Assembly (NCBI GenBank): GCA_030829955.1
Contig: JAURNY010000028.1
Span: 1-38,967 of the forward strand
Direction of reading: 5' to 3'
DNA length: 38,967 nt
From: Gammaproteobacteria bacterium
GTDB lineage: Bacteria > Pseudomonadota > Gammaproteobacteria > Eutrophobiales > Eutrophobiaceae
Numbering within the stretch: the first letter of the stretch is position 1; each line of letters opens with the position of its first letter. Under the pieces are notes generated by a model that was given only the letters and a program-made list of their open reading frames with translations, ran no database searches and had not been told where the DNA came from. Position numbers and translations under genes: made by a program. Below, one piece after another: positions 6,846 through 20,677 of this stretch.

Positions 6846-7147
6846 TTACCTTAACCAATGTGCTGTTGTTAGCTGCCTTGCTGTTTTGCATCAGTGTTGC
6901 TGGCATATTTCTCAACAGAAAAAATATACTCATATTATTAATGTGTATTGAATTGATGTTGCTGTCAGTCAACATGAACTTTATCGCGTTTTCTCATTTT
7001 CTCGGTGATATCCATGGTCAGATTTTTGTGTTCTTTATCCTGACTGTAGCAGCTGCAGAAGCGGCGATAGGGCTGGCCATTTTGATCGTGATGTTTAGAA
7101 ATCGCGATACGATTAATGTTGAATCACTGGATAGTATGAAAGGGTAG
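6842..7147 (+). CDS. nuoK: NADH-quinone oxidoreductase subunit K
   Basis: NuoK (ND4L) is a three-helix membrane subunit forming part of the E-channel of complex I. Conserved membrane glutamates are visible in [16 protein letters not shown] (second helix) and [13 protein letters not shown] (third helix). A good ribosome site (GGAGGGTAAGGA) lies in the end of nuoJ just before the ATG. At 101 residues it matches the family exactly. It is homologous to the MnhC-like subunit encoded at 14674-15024, so the window holds two distinct NuoK-family genes. Confidence 0.96.
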
Positions 7148-7152
7148 TGGTG

Positions 7153-9126
7153 ATGAGCGAACATATGGAAAATATTTATCTCGCGATTGTCTTGTCACCG
7201 TTGATTGGTTCGATCATTGCCGGATTGTTTGGCAAGCTCATTGGTCGTAGTGGCGCACATTGGGTAACCATTATTGGTGTTGCCGTTGCCAGTATCTTAT
7301 CCATGTTTGTATATAAACATCATATGTTTGATGGTGCCCCTGATTATAATGCGGCGGTTTATACATGGCTCAGTAGTGGCGGAATTAATTTTGAAGTTGG
7401 TTTTCTAATCGATCCATTGTCAGTGACCATGATGGTCGTCGTGACATTTGTTTCGTGGATGATTCATATCTATACCATCGGCTATATGCATGATGATCCC
7501 GGTTATCAGCGCTTCTTCAGTTATATCTCCTTATTTACCTTTGCCATGCTGATGCTGGTTATGTCGAATAACTTTATGCAGTTGTTCTTTGGTTGGGAAG
7601 CTGTTGGTCTGGTGTCTTATTTATTAATCGGCTTCTGGTATAAAAAGGACACAGCAATCTTTGCCAACCTGAAGGCATTTTTAGTGAATCGCGTAGGTGA
7701 CTTTGGTTTTCTATTAGGTATTGCTGCTGTATTAATGTATTTCAATTCACTGGATTATTTTGAAGTATTTGCACAAGCTGAAGGGCTGGCTGACACCACC
7801 ATTGTCATATTTGGTGATCATGCATGGTCCTTAATGACTGTTATTTGTATTTGCCTGTTTATTGGTGCGATGGGTAAGTCCGCTCAGGTACCGTTACATG
7901 TCTGGTTGCCTGACTCAATGGAAGGTCCGACACCTATCTCTGCATTAATCCATGCGGCAACCATGGTAACAGCAGGCATATTTATGGTGTCACGTATGTC
8001 ACCGTTATTTGAATTATCAGAAACCGCGCTGAGTTTCATTTTAATTATCGGTTCTATTACAGCCTTATTTATGGGTTTTCTTGGCCTGGTACAAAACGAC
8101 ATTAAACGTGTTGTTGCCTATTCAACCTTGTCACAATTAGGTTATATGACGGTTGCTTTGGGCGCTTCAGCCTACGCAGCAGCCATGTTTCATTTAGTAA
8201 CTCACGCATTTTTCAAGGCATTGTTATTTCTTGCTGCTGGTTCAGTAATCATCATCATGCATCATGAACAAGACATGAGAAAAATGGGTGGGCTATACAA
8301 GAAGATGCCTATTACATGGATCACGTGTTTTGTAGGTTCGATTGCCTTGATTGGTTTTCCTGGCACCTCTGGTTTCTTTTCAAAAGATGCAATTATTGAA
8401 GCTGTACATCATTCACAAATATTCGGTAGTACCTTTGCCTATTATGCTGTGTTGTCTGGTGTCTTTATTACTGCCTTATATAGTTTCCGTTTATTCTTTA
8501 TGACGTTTCATGGTGAAGAGCGCATGGATAAGGAAACATGGATGCATTTGCATGAGGCACCTGCAGTTGTCACTGTGCCATTATCAGTACTGGCGATTCC
8601 TTCATTAATACTAGGCGCGTTCTTAATCGGACCAATGCTATTTGGTGATTACTTTGGTAACACTATCTACGTTGCTGAAAAACATAATGTCTTGCATGAG
8701 ATTGGTAGTCATTACGAAGGCATAATGCTTTTTACGCTTTATGCATTTAAACACCCGCCAGTCTATCTTGCTTTTGCCGGCATCTTTGTTGCCTGGTTAT
8801 GTTATATCAAATTCCCTGACTGGCCTGGACTGATAGTGTCACGTATCAAATGGATACATTGCATACTGGAAAAGAAATATGGCTTTGATGAGTTCAATCA
8901 AAAAGTATTTGCTGGTGGTACGCGTTGTCTGGGTCGTATGTTATGGAAATATGGTGATATAAGTATTATTGATGGCATTTTTGTCAATGGCACCGCGCGT
9001 AGCGTTGGCATTATTTCCAGTGTGATTCGCCATATTCAATCGGGATATCTTTACCATTATGCCTTTGCCATTATTTTGGGCTTATTGGTATTAATCGCAG
9101 TGTTTGTGCACGGTGTTTTGAATTAG
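7153..9126 (+). CDS. nuoL: NADH-quinone oxidoreductase subunit L (antiporter-like proton channel)
   Basis: NuoL (ND5) is the distal antiporter-like subunit of complex I, with a long lateral helix along the membrane arm. Key residues include the helix-5 glutamate in FFGWEAVGLVSYLLIG, the central lysine in GKSAQVPLHVWLPDSM, and the distal lysine in GTSGFFSKDAII. The hydrophobic C-terminus forms the lateral helix and terminal membrane segment. GTG codons at 7147 and 7150 are in frame, but the ATG at 7153 is spaced correctly from an AAAGGG site at 7139-7144, so I chose it (657 residues). It starts 5 bp after the nuoK stop. Confidence 0.95.
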   Translation: MSEHMENIYLAIVLSPLIGSIIAGLFGKLIGRSGAHWVTIIGVAVASILSMFVYKHHMFDGAPDYNAAVYTWLSSGGINFEVGFLIDPLSVTMMVVVTFVSWMIHIYTIGYMHDDPGYQRFFSYISLFTFAMLMLVMSNNFMQLFFGWEAVGLVSYLLIGFWYKKDTAIFANLKAFLVNRVGDFGFLLGIAAVLMYFNSLDYFEVFAQAEGLADTTIVIFGDHAWSLMTVICICLFIGAMGKSAQVPLHVWLPDSMEGPTPISALIHAATMVTAGIFMVSRMSPLFELSETALSFILIIGSITALFMGFLGLVQNDIKRVVAYSTLSQLGYMTVALGASAYAAAMFHLVTHAFFKALLFLAAGSVIIIMHHEQDMRKMGGLYKKMPITWITCFVGSIALIGFPGTSGFFSKDAIIEAVHHSQIFGSTFAYYAVLSGVFITALYSFRLFFMTFHGEERMDKETWMHLHEAPAVVTVPLSVLAIPSLILGAFLIGPMLFGDYFGNTIYVAEKHNVLHEIGSHYEGIMLFTLYAFKHPPVYLAFAGIFVAWLCYIKFPDWPGLIVSRIKWIHCILEKKYGFDEFNQKVFAGGTRCLGRMLWKYGDISIIDGIFVNGTARSVGIISSVIRHIQSGYLYHYAFAIILGLLVLIAVFVHGVLN

Positions 9127-9145
9127 GAAACAGAAGACTTAACTT

Positions 9146-10666
9146 ATGACGGTTAGTAATTTACCCATTCTCAGTATGTTAATCTGGACACCAATTATTG
9201 GTGGTATCTGGACATTAATCGCGGGCGATCGTCAGGAACAAACGGTTAAGTATTTTTCACTGGCTGTTTCAATATTAACCTTCGTCTTTTCTGTCTTGCT
9301 TTATCTCGACTTCGATAATGCCAGTGCTAGCATGCAGTTCGTTGAGAGGGTGTCATGGATCAAGGCATTTGATATTCAATATTATCTTGGCGTTGATGGC
9401 ATTGCTTTACCATTAATATTACTGACCTGTTTTACAACTATTTTAGTTGTATTGGCGGCATGGGAAGTCATTGAAAAGCATATTTCCTACTACATGGCGG
9501 CCTTTCTGATTCTGACCGGATTAATGAATGGTGTCTTTGTAGCGCTCGATGCCATTCTGTTTTATGTCTTCTGGGAAGCCATGTTGATACCTATGTTTAT
9601 TATTATCGGTATCTGGGGTGGGCCAAATCGTGTTTATGCCACGATTAAATTCTTTCTCTATACCTTTTTAGGTTCTGTCTTCATGCTGGTGGCGTTTTTA
9701 TATCTCTATGCGAAGGCAGGTAGTTTTGAAATTTCAGCTATGCATGATGTTGCACTTACATTGCAGGCCCAGAAGTTAATCTTTATTGCTTTCTTCCTGG
9801 CCTTTGCAGTGAAGATTCCAATGTGGCCGGTTCATACATGGTTACCGGATGCGCACGTTGAAGCACCGACAGGTGGTTCCGTCATACTGGCAGCAATTAT
9901 GTTGAAGATGGGCGGTTACGGTTTTTTACGTTTTAGTTTGCCTATTACACCGGATGCCAGTTTGCATTTTGATGACTTTATGATTGTTCTGTCATTAATT
10001 GCCGTTGTATATATTGGTTTTGTCGCCCTTGTTCAGGAAGACATGAAAAAGTTGATTGCTTATTCATCAATTTCACATATGGGTTTTGTCACACTCGGTT
10101 TCTTTATTCCATTTACCATTGTTGCCAATACCGGTGAAACTTCCGGTGCGATAATGGGGATGGAAGGTGCAATGATGCAGATGATTTCTCATGGTTTTAT
10201 CTCTGCGGCGATGTTCCTGTGTGTTGGTGTTATGTATGACCGTATGCATAGTCGTATGATTAAAGACTATGGCGGTGTGGTAAATAGCATGCCTTATTTC
10301 GCAGCCTTTATGTTGCTGTTTGCGATGGCAAACTCCGGTTTACCAGGCACATCAGGATTTGTTGGTGAATTTTTAGTTATCTTAAGTAGTTTTGAAGCAA
10401 GTTTCTGGATTGCATTCTTTGCAGCGTTTACATTAATTCTCGGCGCAGCATACACATTATGGATGTATAAGCGCGTTATCTTTGGTGATGTAACGCGGGA
10501 AGAAGTTGCCGAATTAACAGATATCAATGCAAGAGAAACATTAATATTAGTTTTATTAGCTATTGTGGTGTTGTTGTTTGGTGTCTGGCCTGCACCTGTT
10601 TTTGATGTCATGCATGCCAGTGTAGAACAATTGATCAATCATTCTTTACAAAGCAAGGCGTTTTAA
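9146..10666 (+). CDS. nuoM: NADH-quinone oxidoreductase subunit M (antiporter-like proton channel)
   Basis: NuoM (ND4) is the middle antiporter-like membrane subunit. The helix-5 glutamate lies in LFYVFWEAMLIPMFIIIG, the central lysine in FAVKIPMWPVHTWLPDAHVE, and the C-terminal channel lysine/glutamate position in GTSGFVGEFLVI. The last is Glu (FVGEF), as expected for NuoM and unlike the Lys of NuoL and NuoN. About 14 membrane helices, 506 residues. A ribosome site (AGGAAA) lies just after the nuoL stop, 20 bp before the ATG, in a 19-bp gap. Confidence 0.96.
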   Translation: MTVSNLPILSMLIWTPIIGGIWTLIAGDRQEQTVKYFSLAVSILTFVFSVLLYLDFDNASASMQFVERVSWIKAFDIQYYLGVDGIALPLILLTCFTTILVVLAAWEVIEKHISYYMAAFLILTGLMNGVFVALDAILFYVFWEAMLIPMFIIIGIWGGPNRVYATIKFFLYTFLGSVFMLVAFLYLYAKAGSFEISAMHDVALTLQAQKLIFIAFFLAFAVKIPMWPVHTWLPDAHVEAPTGGSVILAAIMLKMGGYGFLRFSLPITPDASLHFDDFMIVLSLIAVVYIGFVALVQEDMKKLIAYSSISHMGFVTLGFFIPFTIVANTGETSGAIMGMEGAMMQMISHGFISAAMFLCVGVMYDRMHSRMIKDYGGVVNSMPYFAAFMLLFAMANSGLPGTSGFVGEFLVILSSFEASFWIAFFAAFTLILGAAYTLWMYKRVIFGDVTREEVAELTDINARETLILVLLAIVVLLFGVWPAPVFDVMHASVEQLINHSLQSKAF

Positions 10667-10669
10667 TTA

Positions 10670-12106
10670 ATGAGTATAAGTAACGAAATATTATTAGCAT
10701 TACCCGAACTTAGCCTGTTAAGTATGGCTTGTTTGGTACTCGTTGTAGATGCCTTTAGTAAAGATCCGGATCATCGAATTACTTACTGGCTTACGCAAAT
10801 CAGTTTGGCAATTGTATTTTTGCTGGTTTTTACTTCTATTCCTGACGAACCACGTCTGGCTTTTCATAATAGTTTCATCGATGATGCGATGAGTTCGGTG
10901 CTTAAGTGTTTTATCTGCGCAATCACGATTATTGTCTTTCTATATTCCTATGAGTATTTGAAAGAAAATAAATTAATGAAAGGCGAATATTTCGTGCTTG
11001 GTTTATTTGCTGTGTTAGGCATGATGATTATGTCATCAGCCTATAGTCTCTTATCTATTTATTTAGGTCTGGAACTCATGTCATTGTCAATGTATGCAAT
11101 GGTTGCCATGAATAGAAAGTCAGCAGCAGCATCAGAAGCGGCAATGAAATACTTTATTCTTGGCGCTCTTGCTTCAGGCATGTTGTTATATGGTATTTCC
11201 ATGATCTATGGCTTGACCAGTAGCATTCAATTTACCGAGATTGCTGCCATATCGATGACAAGTGTCGAGAATTCACGCTTTCTGGTATTTGGTATGATCT
11301 TTATGATCATTGGTATTGCATTCAAACTGGGGGCCGCACCATTTCATATGTGGGTGCCTGATGTTTATCAGGGTGCACCAACATCTGTTACCTTATTTAT
11401 CAGTACTGCACCAAAACTCGCGGCGTTTGCCATGGCGATTAGAATTCTCGTAGATGGTTTATTCCCACTGGTAGCGGATTGGCAATCAATACTCATGGTG
11501 CTGGCCGTATTGTCTATGGCGATTGGTAATATCGTTGCGATCTCGCAAACGAATATCAAACGTATGTTGGCTTATTCAACTATTGCCCATGTCGGTTATT
11601 TATTTCTGGGATTAATAGCAGGCACAATTAATGGTTTTGCCGGCTCCATGTTTTACATCATTAGTTATGCACTGATGAGTATGGGCACCTTCGGTATGAT
11701 TATTCTGTTAGGCCGTTATGAATTTGAAGCTAAAAACCTCGAAGATTTTAAAGGGCTATCAGGACGTTCTCCCTGGTTTGCTTTTATTATGATGTGCCTG
11801 ATGTTTTCAATGGCTGGTGTTCCTCCATTTTTGGGTTTCTGGTCAAAATGGTTTGTCTTGAAAGAATTAGTTGCTTCAGGTTATTTCGCATTGGCTGCTG
11901 TTTCAGTCGTCTTTTCAATCATTGGCGCTTATTACTATCTGCGCATTGTTAAACTGATGTACTTTGATAAACCGGATAAAATGACTGCGATCAAGGCAAC
12001 TAAACAAATGCGAGCAGTGCTTACTGCAAATGGTTTATTGATTCTGGTTCTTGGTTTATTACCTAATAGTTTAATGCAAATCTGTCTGACAGCATTGGCC
12101 CACTAG
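10670..12106 (+). CDS. nuoN: NADH-quinone oxidoreductase subunit N (antiporter-like proton channel)
   Basis: NuoN (ND2) is the antiporter-like subunit nearest the NuoAJK segment and the last gene of the operon. Diagnostic segments are the helix-5 glutamate in YLGLELMSLSMYAMVA, the channel lysine in GIAFKLGAAPFHMWVPDVYQ, and the C-terminal lysine in PPFLGFWSKWFVLKE. Length 478 residues with about 14 helices. The start is 3 bp after nuoM. Its TAG stop (12104-12106) shares bases with the stop of the convergent psd gene, leaving no room for a terminator between them. Confidence 0.96.
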   Translation: MSISNEILLALPELSLLSMACLVLVVDAFSKDPDHRITYWLTQISLAIVFLLVFTSIPDEPRLAFHNSFIDDAMSSVLKCFICAITIIVFLYSYEYLKENKLMKGEYFVLGLFAVLGMMIMSSAYSLLSIYLGLELMSLSMYAMVAMNRKSAAASEAAMKYFILGALASGMLLYGISMIYGLTSSIQFTEIAAISMTSVENSRFLVFGMIFMIIGIAFKLGAAPFHMWVPDVYQGAPTSVTLFISTAPKLAAFAMAIRILVDGLFPLVADWQSILMVLAVLSMAIGNIVAISQTNIKRMLAYSTIAHVGYLFLGLIAGTINGFAGSMFYIISYALMSMGTFGMIILLGRYEFEAKNLEDFKGLSGRSPWFAFIMMCLMFSMAGVPPFLGFWSKWFVLKELVASGYFALAAVSVVFSIIGAYYYLRIVKLMYFDKPDKMTAIKATKQMRAVLTANGLLILVLGLLPNSLMQICLTALAH

Positions 12107-14624: not shown

Positions 14625-14673
14625 CTTTTTTATTTCAATTCCTTGTATAGTGTCGGGCTATAAGACAATAATA

Positions 14674-15024
14674 ATGATTATATTGGAACATATTAATTAT
14701 TGGGTGGTAGTGATATTGATGATGACAGGCTTTTATGTCGTTATCTCTCACAATAATCTGGTGAAGAAATTAATCGGTATCAATATATTTCAGACTTCAA
14801 TTTTTATTCTCTTTATTTCTTTCGGTAAAGTAGATGGCGGTACGGCACCCATATTGTCAGAGGGCTATCAAAATTTTTCTGCGCCCTTGCCACATGTATT
14901 GATACTTACAGCGATTGTAGTAGGTATTGCTACAACAGCATTGGGTCTGGCGTTAGTCATTCGTATTAATCGTGCGTTTAATACAGTTGAAGATGATGAG
15001 ATTAAAAAGGCGATGTCTCAATGA
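14674..15024 (+). CDS. MnhC/MrpC-like (NuoK-family) cation:proton antiporter subunit
   Basis: This is a three-helix membrane protein of the NuoK/MnhC superfamily. Features are the N-terminal helix (YWVVVILMMTGFYVVIS), a second helix after NLVKKLIGINIFQTS, the loop GGTAPIL, and the third helix following the MnhC-type signature LPHVLILTAIVVG. That LTAIV motif and the proline-rich loop point to the Mrp-type C subunit and not to the complex I NuoK, which is separately encoded at 6842-7147. An in-frame GTG at 14650 would add eight residues; the ATG at 14674 gives 116 residues, close to the family norm (about 113). Its stop overlaps the next ATG. It is the first gene of a five-gene coupled operon of antiporter-like subunits; the ion carried is not evident. 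Confidence 0.85.
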   Translation: MIILEHINYWVVVILMMTGFYVVISHNNLVKKLIGINIFQTSIFILFISFGKVDGGTAPILSEGYQNFSAPLPHVLILTAIVVGIATTALGLALVIRINRAFNTVEDDEIKKAMSQ

Positions 15025-16502
15025 CTTCGCATCTGGCTGTCTTACAGGTTGTTACTCCATTACTTGCCGCACCTGTAGTCGTTATCCTGCATAACAAAAC
15101 ACTGGGGTGGTTAATTGCGACACTCGTCAGTTTAAGCTGTTTTATTATCGCCTGTGTATTATGTTTACAGATATACGATGGTAACAATATTGTCTATACG
15201 TTAGGTGGTTGGGCTGCACCGGCAGGTATTGAATATCATGTTGATCGTCTTACTGCATTTTTACTTATTATCATTTCTGGTCTTGCAACGTTTATCCTGA
15301 TAGGCGCTAGAGAAAGTATCGATAACGAAATCTCCGCCGATAGACTTTATTTATTCTATACAGCCTTCCTGTTAAATCTCACTGGTTTGCTTGGCGTGAT
15401 TGTTACAGGTGATGCCTTTAACGTCTTTGTCTTTATTGAGATCGCATCACTATCTTCATATGCATTGATTAGTATTGGTCGTGACAAACGTAGCTTATAT
15501 GCAGCCTATCAGTATTTAATCTTTGGCACGATTGGCGCCAGTTTTATTTTGATCGCGATTGGCCTGATGTACGCTGTTACTGGCACATTAAATATTCACG
15601 ACCTTCATGAGCGTCTTGCTCATGTGCAGGATAGTCGAACCCTTATAACAGCATTAGCGTTTTTTATCATTGGCATTGGTTTGAAAGCCGCTATCTGGCC
15701 ATTGCATATCTGGTTGCCAGATGCCTATACCTATTCGCCTTCAATCGTTTCTACTTTCCTGGCAGGTACAAGCACGAAAGTTTTCATCTATGTCCTGATC
15801 AGGTTTGTATTTTCAATATTTGGTATTGAGTTCAGTATTAATGAATTGTCAGTGCAATATATATTAATGAGTGTTGCATTGATTGCCATCGTGTATGGAT
15901 CACTGCAAGCAATTAAGCAAGATAGCCTTAAACGTTTATTGGCATATTCCAGTATTGCCCAGATAGGTTATATGATTCTGGCTATTTCACTGGTAACTGT
16001 TGCCGGTGTTGCTGCAGGTCTGATTCATGTCTTCAATCATGCGATTATCAAAGTCACATTGTTTTTATGTGTCGCGAATATCATTTATTTCACTGGAACA
16101 GATTCGATTAATAAACTCGCGGGGCTGGGCAAACAAATGCCTGTCACCTGTGGTTTATTTGTTATTGCCGGTTTAAGTATTATTGGTGTGCCTTTAACTG
16201 CAGGCTTTACCAGTAAATGGTTTCTAATCAAGGCAACGATTGATAGCGGCTATTGGTTGGTTATTCCAGTGATCGTTATTTCATCTCTAATGGCAATTGT
16301 TTACATCTGGAAAGTTGTTGAGCAAATATATTTCAAGGAAGCAGATCACGCCCACGTTGTTACTAACAAGGCAATGCCTTACTCCATGTATGTTTCTTTA
16401 TTCGTATTTACTGCTGCCTGTATTTATTTTGGTTTGCAAACCGACATTAATGTCGGGTTAGCACAATTAATTGCCGATGATCTCATAGGTGCAAGGCCAT
16501 GA
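15021..16502 (+). CDS. MnhD/NuoM-like proton-conducting membrane subunit (paralogue 1)
   Basis: This 493-residue protein has about 14 membrane helices and belongs to the antiporter-like superfamily (Proton_antipo_M) shared by MrpA/D and NuoL/M/N. The conserved channel residues are present: helix-5 Glu in FVFIEIASLSSYALIS, central Lys in GLKAAIWPLHIWLPDAYTYS, a further Lys in NHAIIKVTLFL, and distal Lys in LTAGFTSKWFLIKA. The GLKAAIWPLHIWLPDAY form is typical of Mrp subunit D. It overlaps the MnhC-like gene by 4 bp and the next paralogue by 4 bp. It probably conducts H+ in exchange for another ion or as part of a larger complex; no Mrp A, B, E, F or G partner is nearby. Confidence 0.85.
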   Translation: MTSHLAVLQVVTPLLAAPVVVILHNKTLGWLIATLVSLSCFIIACVLCLQIYDGNNIVYTLGGWAAPAGIEYHVDRLTAFLLIIISGLATFILIGARESIDNEISADRLYLFYTAFLLNLTGLLGVIVTGDAFNVFVFIEIASLSSYALISIGRDKRSLYAAYQYLIFGTIGASFILIAIGLMYAVTGTLNIHDLHERLAHVQDSRTLITALAFFIIGIGLKAAIWPLHIWLPDAYTYSPSIVSTFLAGTSTKVFIYVLIRFVFSIFGIEFSINELSVQYILMSVALIAIVYGSLQAIKQDSLKRLLAYSSIAQIGYMILAISLVTVAGVAAGLIHVFNHAIIKVTLFLCVANIIYFTGTDSINKLAGLGKQMPVTCGLFVIAGLSIIGVPLTAGFTSKWFLIKATIDSGYWLVIPVIVISSLMAIVYIWKVVEQIYFKEADHAHVVTNKAMPYSMYVSLFVFTAACIYFGLQTDINVGLAQLIADDLIGARP

Positions 16503-17962
16503 GCAGTTCTTCCATGTTGCTGGTGGCAGTGCTGGTTCCATTGCTTGGTGCTATTGGCATTTATATAACAGGCAAACATCCGAATTTGAGAGAAACCGTT
16601 ACCTTAATCGCTGCCGGATTATTGTTACTCATTGTTTATTCTTTATTACCGGGAGTATTAGCAGGCGCACGACCTGAATATAAATTCTTTGAAATATTTC
16701 CTGGGCTGGATGTTGCTTTTCGTCTTGAGCCATTAGGCATGTTGTTTGCCTGTATTGCTTCATTATTGTGGCCCGTCAATTCAATCTATTCCATTGGTTA
16801 TATGCGTGGCAATAATGAAAAAAAGCAAACATGTTTTTATATATGTTTTGCTGTTGCCATCGCCAGTACGATTGGTATCGCTTTTTCAGCAAACCTAATC
16901 ACCTTATTTATCTTTTATGAAACATTAACGTTATCTACCTATCCGCTGGTCACACATAAAGGCAATGATGCGGCGAAAAAATCCGGTCGGGTTTATTTAG
17001 GTATTTTATTAACAACATCAATTTGTTTGTTATTACCTGCAATTATCTGGATTTACTCTATTGCTGATACAACTGCCTTTACTGAAGGTGGCATCCTGCC
17101 TGCCACCACACACAAATCAGTTTTGTTAGCATTATTATTAATGACGACCTACGGTATTGGTAAAGCAGCGGTGATGCCAGTACACCGTTGGCTACCTGCG
17201 GCGATGGTCGCACCAACACCTGTCAGTGCTTTATTACATGCTGTTGCCGTTGTGAAAGCCGGTGTGTTTAGTATTGTTAAAATCATGACGTATATCTTTA
17301 GCCCTGCTGTTTTGTCAGAGCAATTGGATATTAACTTTGTCATTTATCTATCCAGTTTTACGATCATTGCAGCATCTTTTGTTGCCTTACAGGCAGATAA
17401 CCTAAAGAGACGCCTGGCGTATTCAACCATTAGCCAATTATCTTATGTAGTATTGGCAACCGCTTTATTAGCTCCTTTATCAATATTAGGTGCGGCATTA
17501 CATATACTTGCACATGCCTTTGGTAAAATAACCTTATTCTTTGCAGCGGGTTCTATTTATACCGCTGCACATAAAACATTGGTCAGTGAGCTTGATGGTA
17601 TTGGTTATAAAATGCCGATTACCATGTTGGCTTTTACTATTGGTAGCTTATCGATGATTGGTGTACCACCTACCGCTGGTTTTGTTAGTAAATGGTTTAT
17701 CTTGCAAGGTTCGTTTTCTGTTGATAGTACGGTAGCGATTGCTGTAATTGTTTTGAGCACATTATTAAATGCAGGATATTTTTTACCGATTGTCTATCGC
17801 GCCTTTTTAAAGAAACCGGACGGTGCTGAACAATCAATCCATGAAGCGCCATTGCCGATGGTAATGGCATTATCGTTTACAGCATTAATGACCATCATAT
17901 TATTTTTCTATCCTGATTTGGCGTTGAGTTTACTTGAGCCATGGCTGGAGAGTTTGTCATGA
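16499..17962 (+). CDS. MnhD/NuoM-like proton-conducting membrane subunit (paralogue 2)
   Basis: This is a second, clearly different antiporter-like subunit of 487 residues and about 14 helices. It keeps the channel residues: helix-5 Glu in LFIFYETLTLSTYPLV, central Lys in GIGKAAVMPVHRWLPAAM followed by a second Lys in HAVAVVKAGVFSIVK, a Lys in HAFGKITLFFAAGS, and distal Lys in PTAGFVSKWFILQG. The HRWLPAAMVAPTPVSALLHA stretch is nearer to NuoL- and MrpA-type sequences than paralogue 1. ATGA overlap with the preceding gene and overlap with the next small gene imply one polycistronic message. Confidence 0.85.
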   Translation: MSSSSMLLVAVLVPLLGAIGIYITGKHPNLRETVTLIAAGLLLLIVYSLLPGVLAGARPEYKFFEIFPGLDVAFRLEPLGMLFACIASLLWPVNSIYSIGYMRGNNEKKQTCFYICFAVAIASTIGIAFSANLITLFIFYETLTLSTYPLVTHKGNDAAKKSGRVYLGILLTTSICLLLPAIIWIYSIADTTAFTEGGILPATTHKSVLLALLLMTTYGIGKAAVMPVHRWLPAAMVAPTPVSALLHAVAVVKAGVFSIVKIMTYIFSPAVLSEQLDINFVIYLSSFTIIAASFVALQADNLKRRLAYSTISQLSYVVLATALLAPLSILGAALHILAHAFGKITLFFAAGSIYTAAHKTLVSELDGIGYKMPITMLAFTIGSLSMIGVPPTAGFVSKWFILQGSFSVDSTVAIAVIVLSTLLNAGYFLPIVYRAFLKKPDGAEQSIHEAPLPMVMALSFTALMTIILFFYPDLALSLLEPWLESLS

Positions 17963-18204
17963 GTAACGAAAACTGGTTTTATAAAAAATCTTCTATCAAA
18001 AAATTATGGATAGGCACTTATGTGGTTTTGGCATTGACTGTCATAGCCGAGATTTTTATCAAACTACAACCTCATTTCAAGATAGAAGCCTTGTTTGGTT
18101 TTCACGCCTGGTATGGTTTTTTAACATGTGTAGCCATGGTCTTGTTTGCCAAAGTGTTGGGGTTTTTAATTAAGCGACAGGATGATTATTATGATGATGA
18201 ATAG
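17959..18204 (+). CDS. Small two-helix membrane protein in the antiporter operon
   Basis: This encodes 81 residues starting at the ATG that overlaps the preceding stop (ATGA). An earlier in-frame ATG at 17941 would add six residues but lies deeper in the upstream gene. Two hydrophobic segments are visible: about residues 18-36 (IGTYVVLALTVIAEIFI) and 48-67 (HAWYGFLTCVAMVLFAKVLG). The tail KRQDDYYDDE is strongly acidic. I do not recognise a named family. Position between two antiporter-like subunits, with overlaps on both sides, makes it a likely subunit or assembly factor of that complex. The two-helix hairpin with charged ends recalls accessory subunits of complex I-like membrane arms, but that is inference. 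Confidence 0.75.
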   Translation: MSNENWFYKKSSIKKLWIGTYVVLALTVIAEIFIKLQPHFKIEALFGFHAWYGFLTCVAMVLFAKVLGFLIKRQDDYYDDE

Positions 18205-19855
18205 TCTCATGCATCCTGGCTTTTTATTAATACTTGCAGGGTTATTGTTGCCGCTATTCAAAGGTGCGGCACGCACAGCCATAATACTCATTATGCCGTT
18301 AGTCGCGCTGGGGTTTATCTGGACATTATCGTTTGGTAATCATCTTTCATTTGAATATCTGGGTCATGAGCTGGGCTTATTAAAAGTAGATGCTGTCAGT
18401 CGTTTATTTATTACTGTTTTCGCTCTTACTGTATTTACGGGTTCGCTCTATTGTTGCAAACAGGCGAATTCCACTGAACTAGCAGCTGCATTTTGTTATG
18501 CCGGTGGTGCAATGTCAGTTGTGTTGGCAGCTGACTTGATTACGTTATTCATCTTTTGGGAGATTATGGCGATTGCGTCAACCTTATTAATTTGGTCTTC
18601 GCGCACAACATCTTCTCAAAAAGCGGGTATGCGTTATGTCATCATACATTTGCTTGGCGGAGTAATACTCATGGCAGGCATTGCCGCACATGTTTATGAG
18701 ACAGGTTCGATTACCTTTGAACAATTTCAGATGGATTCATATGCATCCATTTTTATTCTTTGCGGGTTTTTATTAAATGCTGGAGCGCCACCATTAACTG
18801 CATGGCTTGCGGATGCCTATCCTGAATCATCATTCAGTGGCATGGTTTTTTTAAGTGCCTTTACAACCAAAACTGCGGTGTATGTTTTATTGAGAGGGTT
18901 CCCAGGCACTGAAATATTAATTTTCATCGGTATATATATGATCTTTTATGGAATCATCTATGCCTTACTTGAAAATGATATGCGGCGCATACTTGCCTAT
19001 AGCATTATTAATCAGGTGGGTTTCATGATTACCGGTATAGGTATCGGTACCGATATGGCATTAAATGGTGCAGCTGCTCATGCCTTCACGCATATTGTTT
19101 ATAAAGCGTTGTTATTAATGTCTGCGGGTTCTGTTTTATTTATGACAGGCAAACGTAAATGTACAGACCTTGGTGGATTGATCCATACAATGCCGGTAAC
19201 GGCTATTTGTGGAATTATAGGAGCTTTAGCAATATCATCATTTCCATTAACGTCCGGCTTTGTCAGTAAATCTATGATCACGCAGTCATCTGTTGATGAA
19301 CATATTTTATGGGTATGGTTATGTTTGCAAGCGGCATCAGCAGGTGTGTTTTTGCATGCGGGTATAAAATTCCCATGGTTTGTTTTTTTTCAAAAAGATA
19401 GCGGGCTTAGACCAGATGATCCTCCCTGGAATATGCAGGCAGGCATGATACTTTTTGCCTTCGTATGTATATTTCTAGGTGTATTCCCGAATGTGCTTTA
19501 TACCATGTTGCCATATACCATTAATTATGTTCCTTATACCGCTGCTCACACTGTGACTCAATTACAATTATTGTTATTTTCAGGTCTGGCATTCTTTATC
19601 ATGTTGCCGTTGATGAAACGTACATTAACGATCAGTCTTGATTTCGACTGGTTTTATCGAGTTGCAGGGATAAGGTTATTTGATGTATTGATGAAAATGA
19701 TTGTTGCATTGAGTGGTCTTTCGCATGTTTTCTGCGAAAAAATCTGTTCATTAGCATCTCGCGCGGGGCAACTTTCATTGAATTCATCAGTTGCTCTGTA
19801 CATGACTCTGGTATTATTAATTTTTACTAGCTGTTTAATCTATCTGTTGTTTTGA
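18191..19855 (+). CDS. MnhD/NuoM-like membrane subunit (paralogue 3), central Lys replaced by Asn
   Basis: This is a third antiporter-like subunit, with about 554 residues from the ATG at 18191, chosen because AGGA lies 7 bp upstream; ATGs at 18182 and 18194 are also in frame. It keeps helix-5 Glu124 (FIFWEIMAIAS), Lys227 (AFTTKTAVYVLL), a Lys in THIVYKALLLMSAGS and the distal Lys in LTSGFVSKSMIT. The central helix-7 position, Lys in paralogues 1 and 2 and in NuoL/M/N, is Asn196 here (LLNAGAPPLTAWLADAYPES), and the following His is Thr. An extra C-terminal extension of about 80 residues ends in one more membrane helix. It overlaps the small two-helix gene by 14 bp and is the last gene of the operon. 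Confidence 0.83.
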   Translation: MMMNSLMHPGFLLILAGLLLPLFKGAARTAIILIMPLVALGFIWTLSFGNHLSFEYLGHELGLLKVDAVSRLFITVFALTVFTGSLYCCKQANSTELAAAFCYAGGAMSVVLAADLITLFIFWEIMAIASTLLIWSSRTTSSQKAGMRYVIIHLLGGVILMAGIAAHVYETGSITFEQFQMDSYASIFILCGFLLNAGAPPLTAWLADAYPESSFSGMVFLSAFTTKTAVYVLLRGFPGTEILIFIGIYMIFYGIIYALLENDMRRILAYSIINQVGFMITGIGIGTDMALNGAAAHAFTHIVYKALLLMSAGSVLFMTGKRKCTDLGGLIHTMPVTAICGIIGALAISSFPLTSGFVSKSMITQSSVDEHILWVWLCLQAASAGVFLHAGIKFPWFVFFQKDSGLRPDDPPWNMQAGMILFAFVCIFLGVFPNVLYTMLPYTINYVPYTAAHTVTQLQLLLFSGLAFFIMLPLMKRTLTISLDFDWFYRVAGIRLFDVLMKMIVALSGLSHVFCEKICSLASRAGQLSLNSSVALYMTLVLLIFTSCLIYLLF

Positions 19856-20554: not shown

Positions 20555-20677
20555 CAATGGTGGCCCGTGCCGGTCCCCCCGCAACATGAAATTGTGAATC
20601 CCGTCAGATCCGGAAGGAAGCAGCGGCAGCAGTGGATGTGTGTGCCGGGGTAGGGACGGTGCGGGTTGCCTCCATTT
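20555..20677 (+). ncRNA. ffs: 4.5S RNA, small bacterial signal recognition particle RNA
   Basis: This is the RNA component of the signal recognition particle, which binds Ffh and targets nascent membrane proteins to the inner membrane. The invariant apical domain is obvious: CAGATCCGGAAGGAAGCAGC (about 20605-20624) with the GGAA tetraloop and the symmetric and asymmetric internal loops recognised by Ffh, followed by the conserved TGTGCCGGGGT on the other side. The terminal helix pairs AATGGTGGCCCG at the 5' end with CGGGTTGCCTCCATT at the 3' end. Exact ends are inferred from that pairing. A T-rich stretch follows (TTTTCGTCCTTATTTT). Location just upstream of dnaX is common in proteobacteria. 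Confidence 0.95.

What the first reader, a model, noticed from the sequence alone, without database searches (positions are those of the whole stretch)
14674..19855. A stripped complex-I-like / Mrp-like operon: one MnhC-type, three MnhD-type and one unknown two-helix subunit
Five overlapping genes encode one NuoK/MnhC-family subunit, three distinct antiporter-like channel subunits and a small unknown membrane protein. There are no MrpA-type fusion, B, E, F or G subunits, no hydrogenase or NADH module, and no DabA-like gene in reach. The K + three channel subunits stoichiometry mirrors the NuoK-L-M-N part of complex I, whose own operon lies only about 2.5 kb upstream. Possible roles: a standalone Na+/H+ (or K+/H+) antiporter, a pump element docking on another redox complex, or an alternative membrane arm. 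Related Mrp-type genes exist in other proteobacteria, but I know of no established function for this minimal set.
Basis: partly seen in the sequence, partly recalled or inferred. Interest (0 to 1): 0.75.

Follow-up and report, generated by a model that had tools for sequence, protein, structure and literature searches.

The report
Half of a split Mrp antiporter
The five genes are not a stripped-down stand-alone pump but one half of a known type of ten-gene sodium (or potassium)/proton exchanger whose other five genes sit elsewhere in the same genome; what stays unexplained is a small conserved partner protein and a missing key lysine in one pump subunit.

Summary
The five overlapping genes are real: C (MrpC), D1, D2, a two-helix protein S, and D3. 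The "stripped" reading is refuted: the same genome encodes MrpE, F, G, an MbhD+MbhE protein (the MrpA C-terminal part) and MrpB in a second cluster. In 63 of 66 named loci with enough upstream DNA all ten genes lie together, in the order E-F-G-A2-B-C-D1-D2-S-D3. The window's clade was split once, between B and C. Best reading: half of a group-3-like Mrp Na+(K+)/H+ antiporter with three antiporter-like subunits. This gene set is named in print as MrpEFGBCD1D2D3 (PMC13274419), and two MrpD-like subunits replacing NuoL in rhizobial "green" complex I are known (PMC9040806); I see D2-S-D3 in that place. Not found described: S occurs in exactly the 36 of 184 genomes that have D3, and one branch of D3, the window's included, has Asn for the TM7 lysine (13 of 37 in an even sample of the class). 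Ion, stoichiometry and assembly are inferred, not shown.

The parts
14650..15024 (+). C: MrpC/NuoK-type subunit (GTG start 14650 or ATG start 14674)
   Evidence: PF00420 72.6 bits; two NCBIfam antiporter subunit C models over cut-off
15021..16502 (+). D1: MrpD-type antiporter-like subunit, key residues E140, K222, K253, K399 present
   Evidence: tree groups it with MrpD and NuoN; Glu in 84 of 85 rows (one gap) and the lysines in 85 of 85
16499..17962 (+). D2: antiporter-like subunit of its own family, with the MrpA/NuoL-like TM8 histidine (H247) and the key Glu and lysines
17941..18204 (+). S: 87-aa two-helix membrane protein with no Pfam/NCBIfam family; neighbour of D3
   Evidence: same genomes as D3, 36 of 184
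18182..19855 (+). D3: antiporter-like subunit of its own family with a C-terminal long helix (489-527) and a last helix (537-556); TM7 lysine replaced by N199
   Evidence: (PRK12668 above cut-off)
7147..12106 (+). nuoL, nuoM, nuoN of the ordinary complex I operon: context only, open reading frames intact, not counted as part of the antiporter

Best explanation
The five genes encode one half (C-D1-D2-S-D3) of a ten-gene Mrp-type cation/proton antiporter of the group-3-like gene order. The other half, E-F-G-A2-B (A2 = MbhD+MbhE domains, the C-terminal part of MrpA), is at contig C10:8662-10718 of the same genome. Shown by sequence: both halves exist, the ten genes are one row in most relatives examined, and a tree places one separation between B and C in the window's clade. 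Inferred: the ten proteins form one complex in which E, F, G, A2, B and C make the cation path, D1 stands where MrpD stands, and D2-S-D3 stands where the single MrpA N-terminal (NuoL-like) domain stands, D3 at the far end with a short lateral helix and S fastening D3 to D2. Protons flowing in along the antiporter-like subunits would drive Na+ (or K+) out, as in Mrp. The window's D3, lacking the TM7 lysine, probably does not run the usual Lys/Glu switch but still offers LysTM8 and LysTM12 for proton passage.
For: Own genome: MnhE, then E, F, G, MbhD/MbhE, B in a row; queries with D1 and D3 each find only six antiporter-like proteins in the genome, three of them Nuo. Relatives: of 20 fetched loci 7 have all ten genes together, 9 are split, 4 are cut by contig ends; all 9 split genomes have E-F-G-A2-B as a separate block, as do 4 more. 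First sample: D3 in 21 of 58 genomes, MnhE in 20 of those 21, the exception 63% complete. Named loci: 63 of 66 with at least 6.3 kb upstream have all ten, gene order the same in all that were present. Class sample: MnhE in 34 of 36 genomes with D3 and 45 of 148 without; of the two exceptions G179 begins at F on a contig edge. Split rows form one clade, 10 of 10 among 81 rows. D1 with MrpD/NuoN; D2 and D3 separate. The D3 model's three best PDB matches are MrpA chains. D2-S-D3 stands in place of NuoL in two rhizobial-type plasmid nuo operons. NhaD sits inside the row in one relative, in keeping with Na+/H+ exchange.
Against: No antiport, expression or assembly data for this organism. Genes in two places need matched expression, not tested. 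G137 has two S-D3 pairs, no MnhE in its genome and no other part of the row in the 12 kb scanned, so S-D3 can exist apart. D2-S-D3 also serves in a complex I, so the part list alone does not fix the function. MnhE without D3 also occurs (45 of 148), so MnhE alone does not point to this complex. The D3 model has pLDDT 53-80 over residues 481-557, and matches to MrpA, NuoL and MrpD chains differ little in score.
Confidence: 0.87

Rival explanations
1. The five genes form a complete stand-alone complex with no other subunits.
For: They form one tight overlapping gene row without Mrp E/F/G/B genes next to it, and this arrangement is kept in 9 of 20 relatives fetched.
Against: E-F-G-A2-B present in the same genome and as a separate block in all 9 split relatives; ten genes together in 63 of 66 named loci; MnhE in 34 of 36 genomes with D3 against 45 of 148 without.
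Confidence: 0.05
2. The five proteins, or D2-S-D3 alone, are spare or extra parts of complex I, as in rhizobial green complex I.
For: D2-S-D3 stands in the place of nuoL in Sinorhizobium and Phyllobacterium plasmid nuo operons; in 8 of 9 split relatives fetched nuoN lies about 2-6 kb upstream.
Against: The window's own nuoL, M, N are intact open frames of their usual families; here D2-S-D3 follows MrpC and MrpD-type genes and tracks MnhE across genomes. In L037 nuoN is not within the 6.5 kb upstream that was fetched, and one ten-gene relative, L056, also lies just after nuoN, so closeness to nuo neither always holds nor depends on the split.
Confidence: 0.06
3. The two halves work as two separate devices in split genomes.
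For: Two fissions at the same B/C border, the second on a long branch; G007 shows only the E-F-G-A2-B half.
Against: G007 also lacks any NuoL/M/N-like match, so a contig with both may be missing; all 9 split relatives keep both halves.
Confidence: 0.04

Closest known systems
Group 3 Mrp antiporter of Pyrococcus furiosus, MrpEFGBB'CD (PMC8415708, passages read)
   Same: Same gene order E-F-G-(MbhD+E protein)-B-C-D; no MrpA gene
   Different: Here D1 is followed by D2-S-D3; the window's genome has the genes in two places
Mnh/MrpEFGBCD1D2D3 of Verruconatronum alginivorum (PMC13274419, passages read)
   Same: Same kind of subunit list with three D genes, annotated as a Na+/H+ antiporter
   Different: Given there as genome annotation in the passages I saw; S is not named in them; I did not compare the sequences
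Rhizobial green complex I, two MrpD-like subunits in place of NuoL (PMC9040806, passages read; original Degli Esposti and Martinez Romero 2016 not held)
   Same: D2, S and D3 homologues in that order in the nuoL place; D3 of L189 with Asn at TM7
   Different: There they sit among nuoJ, nuoK, nuoM, nuoN; here among Mrp genes. That these two plasmid operons are the published green complex I is my inference from the description
Mrp complex of Anoxybacillus flavithermus, Bacillus and Dietzia (6z16, 7qru, 7d3u; PMC7419157, passages read)
   Same: E, F, G, B, C, D subunits; the D3 model matches MrpA best
   Different: MrpA is one long protein there; two antiporter-like subunits; seven subunits, none like S listed

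Membership tests
Mrp (CPA3) cation/proton antiporter | MrpB, C, E, F, G homologues encoded in the genome | tested here: met
   PF00420, PF01899, PF04066, PF03334, PF04039 all above cut-off
Mrp (CPA3) cation/proton antiporter | MrpD-type antiporter-like subunit | tested here: met
   D1 groups with MrpD and NuoN, support 98
Mrp groups 1 and 2 | one long MrpA gene (N-terminal antiporter domain fused to MbhD/MbhE part) | tested here: not met
   six antiporter-like matches in the genome, none of MrpA length; the MbhD/MbhE part is a separate 186-aa protein
Mrp group 3 (irregular order) | each subunit domain present in an irregular gene order | tested here: met
   E-F-G-A2-B-C-D1-D2-S-D3 in 63 of 66 named loci; in the window's genome in two blocks. 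The group's definition is from PMC5703873 and PMC8415708 passages
Mrp (CPA3) cation/proton antiporter | Na+ or K+/H+ antiport activity | not testable with these tools
   needs vesicle assays
Complex I / green complex I | antiporter-like subunits encoded with Nuo catalytic and J/K subunits | tested here: not met
   the five genes stand apart from nuo, whose own L, M, N are intact frames and different; contrast L189, L190
DabAB | DabA (PF10070) | tested here: not met
   0 matches in the genome; 2 of 14 control genomes rang
Membrane-bound hydrogenase (Mbh/Hyf) | [NiFe] hydrogenase subunits with the membrane part | not tested
   no such gene among the nine proteins scanned around the set; the genome was not searched

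The most novel reading that the evidence does not exclude
D2-S-D3 is a portable three-protein end piece that takes the place of the single MrpA N-terminal domain or NuoL in two different machines. S is an unrecognised obligate subunit that joins D3 to D2, and in one branch of the family, the window's and the rhizobial one, D3 has given up the TM7 lysine held to be essential, so that it works as a terminal proton gate or brace and not as a third ordinary pump.
Probability: 0.3. Interest if true: 0.55.

Novelty: new member of a known kind. Interest (0 to 1): 0.33.

Why it matters
It corrects an attractive but wrong idea of a minimal pump and shows how reading one window misleads when an operon has been split. 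It also points to a testable gap: antiporters with three antiporter-like subunits and one small subunit without a family model are widespread in Proteobacteria, and in one branch one of the three lacks a lysine described as absolutely conserved and essential (PMC7419157, passage). Comparing branches with and without that lysine would bear on how antiporter-like subunits are coupled in Mrp and in complex I, and on whether such a complex moves two or three protons per cation.

Tried and rejected
Rejected: a stand-alone minimal complex; DabB-type pair; extra arm of complex I. S has no match in Pfam or NCBIfam, no significant match in PDB sequences (profile of 18 rows, best E 0.16) and none in the PDB by fold. 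Promoter and terminator scans were at chance level. Paper searches on this set; all but one of the 40 papers listed were unrelated. I found no paper that names S or the D3 lysine change, but only the library held here was searched and only passages were read; Chadwick 2018 and two Degli Esposti 2016 papers were not held.

A result mended on checking: among 98 distinct D3 rows TM7 is Asn in 91 and Lys in 7, but those rows lean to near relatives of the window. I therefore fetched D3 from the genomes of the class sample: Lys in 24 and Asn in 13 of 37 rows from 36 genomes. The change marks a branch, not the whole family; I lowered the novel case from 0.35 to 0.3 and the interest from 0.35 to 0.33 for this.

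Limits: the 80 named loci are the best of at least 579 that match. The threshold for D3 was E 1e-80. each drew 184 genomes with the same handles as far as listed; genomes without a match are only partly listed. My script counted 45 of 66 complete; 18 more carry A2 fused to B, hidden by its no-overlap rule. Of the 45, 44 have A2 and B as separate frames and L157 has both in one. Not complete: L087, L091 (split) and L122 (only D2-S-D3 seen). Fourteen of 80 loci were not counted, upstream DNA being too short. Four of 85 rows of unknown state were left out of the tree. In one search, 73 of 87 sequences were used (loci L037, L056, L124, L190 left out); some unrelated proteins there carried an HMM label D1 or D2 (L168, L169, L171, L172), hence more than one change for those groups; E. 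coli HyfD fell beside MrpA and NuoL. Trees were quick ones without bootstrap. L193 is a long branch, so its second, independent split is likely, not proven. Five of 37 S matches were flagged with a stop in the matched stretch (G203, G085, G207, G162, G158); each of these has an open S frame of 80 aa or more. E. coli residue numbers are recalled; the letters found there fit them, and NuoN K247 fell one column off the other TM8 lysines.
Full report
What is in the window. Five same-strand genes lie at 14650-19855 and overlap by 4, 4, 22 and 23 nt. Pfam and NCBIfam call them a MrpC-type protein, three proteins with the antiporter domain PF00361, and one 87-aa protein without a family. nuoN ends at 12106; between it and the set lie, on the other strand, genes for phosphatidylserine decarboxylase, an unscanned 149-aa frame and SCO1. 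An SRP RNA gene and dnaX follow.

The missing half. The genome (1.89 Mb, 32 contigs, listed as 100% complete) has six antiporter-like proteins by searches with D1 and D3: Nuo L, M, N and the three here. A search for MnhE found one at contig C10. The region holds, in order, MrpE, MrpF, MrpG, a 186-aa protein with MbhD and MbhE domains, and MrpB. MbhD together with MbhE corresponds to the C-terminal part of MrpA (PMC7419157, passage). So Mrp E, F, G, B, C and the MrpA C-terminal part are all in the genome.

The two halves belong together. In 20 relatives whose D3 region was fetched, 7 have E-F-G-A2-B-C-D1-D2-S-D3 in one row, 9 have C-D1-D2-S-D3 without the rest beside it, and 4 are cut by contig ends. 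All 9 split genomes, and 4 more, have E-F-G-A2-B as a block of its own. In the first sample D3 orthologues (E below 1e-120) occur in 21 of 58 genomes and MnhE in 20 of these; the exception is 63% complete. A scan of named genomes gave 80 loci, mostly alpha-, beta- and gammaproteobacteria with a few others. Of 66 with at least 6.3 kb before D3, 63 have all ten genes: 45 by direct count and 18 with A2 fused to B; the genes present follow the same order in 66 of 66. The three others are L087 and L091 (split) and L122. In 184 genomes of the class at 90% completeness or more, 36 have D3; 34 of these have MnhE, against 45 of 148 without D3. Of the two exceptions, G179 starts at F on a contig edge and G137 has S-D3 pairs alone in the stretch scanned. 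Positions, give for the 36: 31 joined (28 with E and D3 within 9 kb on one strand; G179, G200 and G203 inferred from rows cut by contig ends), 3 split (G000, G001, G121), 1 undetermined (G114), 1 without MnhE (G137).

Fission. On a tree of joined D1, D2 and D3 rows the 10 split rows form one clade among 81 rows (local support 100). G121 is split at the same border and lies elsewhere in the tree, but on a long branch. In one joined relative (L056) the ten-gene row lies just after nuoN, so I infer that the row may have stood by nuo before E-F-G-A2-B left.

Which subunit is which. D1 groups with MrpD and NuoN (98). D2 (99) and D3 (100) are families of their own; MrpA and NuoL, with E. coli HyfD, form another group (98) (SH-aLRT, quick search). 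The proteins of plasmid locus L189 fall in the D2 and D3 families. D2 has the TM8 histidine of MrpA and NuoL in 90 of 92 rows, the other two being gaps. The D3 model (mean pLDDT 87.5) has a helix at 489-527 and a last helix at 537-556, both at lower confidence; its three best PDB matches are MrpA chains (TM-score 0.80-0.82 over the query), then mostly NuoL-type chains with a MrpD at rank 6. I take D2 and D3 together to do what the MrpA N-terminal domain does alone; this is inference.

Key residues. D1: TM5 Glu in 84 of 85 rows (one gap), TM7, TM8, TM12 Lys in 85 of 85. D2: TM5 Glu and TM7 Lys in 90 of 92 (two gaps), TM8 Lys in 89 of 92 (two gaps, one Thr), TM12 Lys in 92 of 92. D3: TM5 Glu, TM8 and TM12 Lys in 98 of 98, but TM7 is Asn in 91 and Lys in 7. 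These rows lean to the window's near kin. In the 36 genomes of the class sample, TM7 is Lys in 24 and Asn in 13 of 37 D3 rows, the other key residues present in 37 of 37. Asn is found in all rows 48% or more identical to the window and in G175 and G137 (40-44%); L189, from a rhizobial plasmid, has it too. PMC7419157 calls these lysines absolutely conserved and essential (passage).

S. It is present in all 66 countable named loci, modelled as two membrane helices (mean pLDDT 83.5), and has no family or fold match. In 184 genomes it occurs in the same 36 genomes as D3 and in none of the 148 others; 37 S matches lie next to 37 D3 matches, at most about 0.4 kb away, G137 having two of each. It also stands between D2 and D3 in the two plasmid nuo operons.

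What it probably does. By homology to Mrp: a secondary antiporter that uses the proton gradient to expel Na+ or K+. In one relative a NhaD Na+/H+ antiporter gene lies between D2 and S. PMC7784846 reports nhaB near a Mrp locus with two extra genes after mrpD (passage). The Mrp structure paper explains two protons per Na+ by two antiporter-like subunits (passage); a third would suggest three, but the missing TM7 lysine of the window's D3 speaks against a third normal pump there. This is open.

What is known. Group 3 Mrp with order EFGBB'CD is studied in P. furiosus (PMC8415708). The list MrpEFGBCD1D2D3 is printed for Verruconatronum (PMC13274419) and MrpEFGBBCDD for a Solemya symbiont (PMC4287430). 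Two MrpD-like subunits replacing NuoL are known as green complex I (PMC9040806). All of these were read as passages. So the kind is known; the window is a split member of it. I did not find S or the D3 substitution in the passages or listings I saw.

Organism. Loci of the same family include one titled uncultured Legionellales bacterium (L087, whose contig length equals that of G027:C10).

Noticed in passing
L191, L200 (G137:C244): Two S-D3 pairs stand without another Mrp gene in the 12 kb scanned, beside a nonribosomal peptide synthetase ORF and a sensor kinase/response regulator pair; both D3 have Asn at TM7.
   Followed up: partly
L055:10986-12434 (G051): A NhaD Na+/H+ antiporter gene is inserted between D2 and S inside the ten-gene row.
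   Followed up: partly
L193 and L194 (G121): A second, probably independent separation of the operon at the same B/C border.
   Followed up: partly
L152: Record titled Klebsiella pneumoniae MAG has the contig length of G036:C2, a genome placed in the window's family; the title looks wrong.
   Followed up: no
20568-20664: Small bacterial SRP RNA gene between D3 and dnaX.
   Followed up: no
L186 (G021): E-F-G-A2-B-C-D1 followed by a NuoL-like and a NuoM-like gene in place of D2-S-D3: perhaps another way of adding pump subunits.
   Followed up: no
L168 (G055): Mrp row with a D2 relative followed by a distant antiporter-like gene; S was not detected by the models.
   Followed up: no
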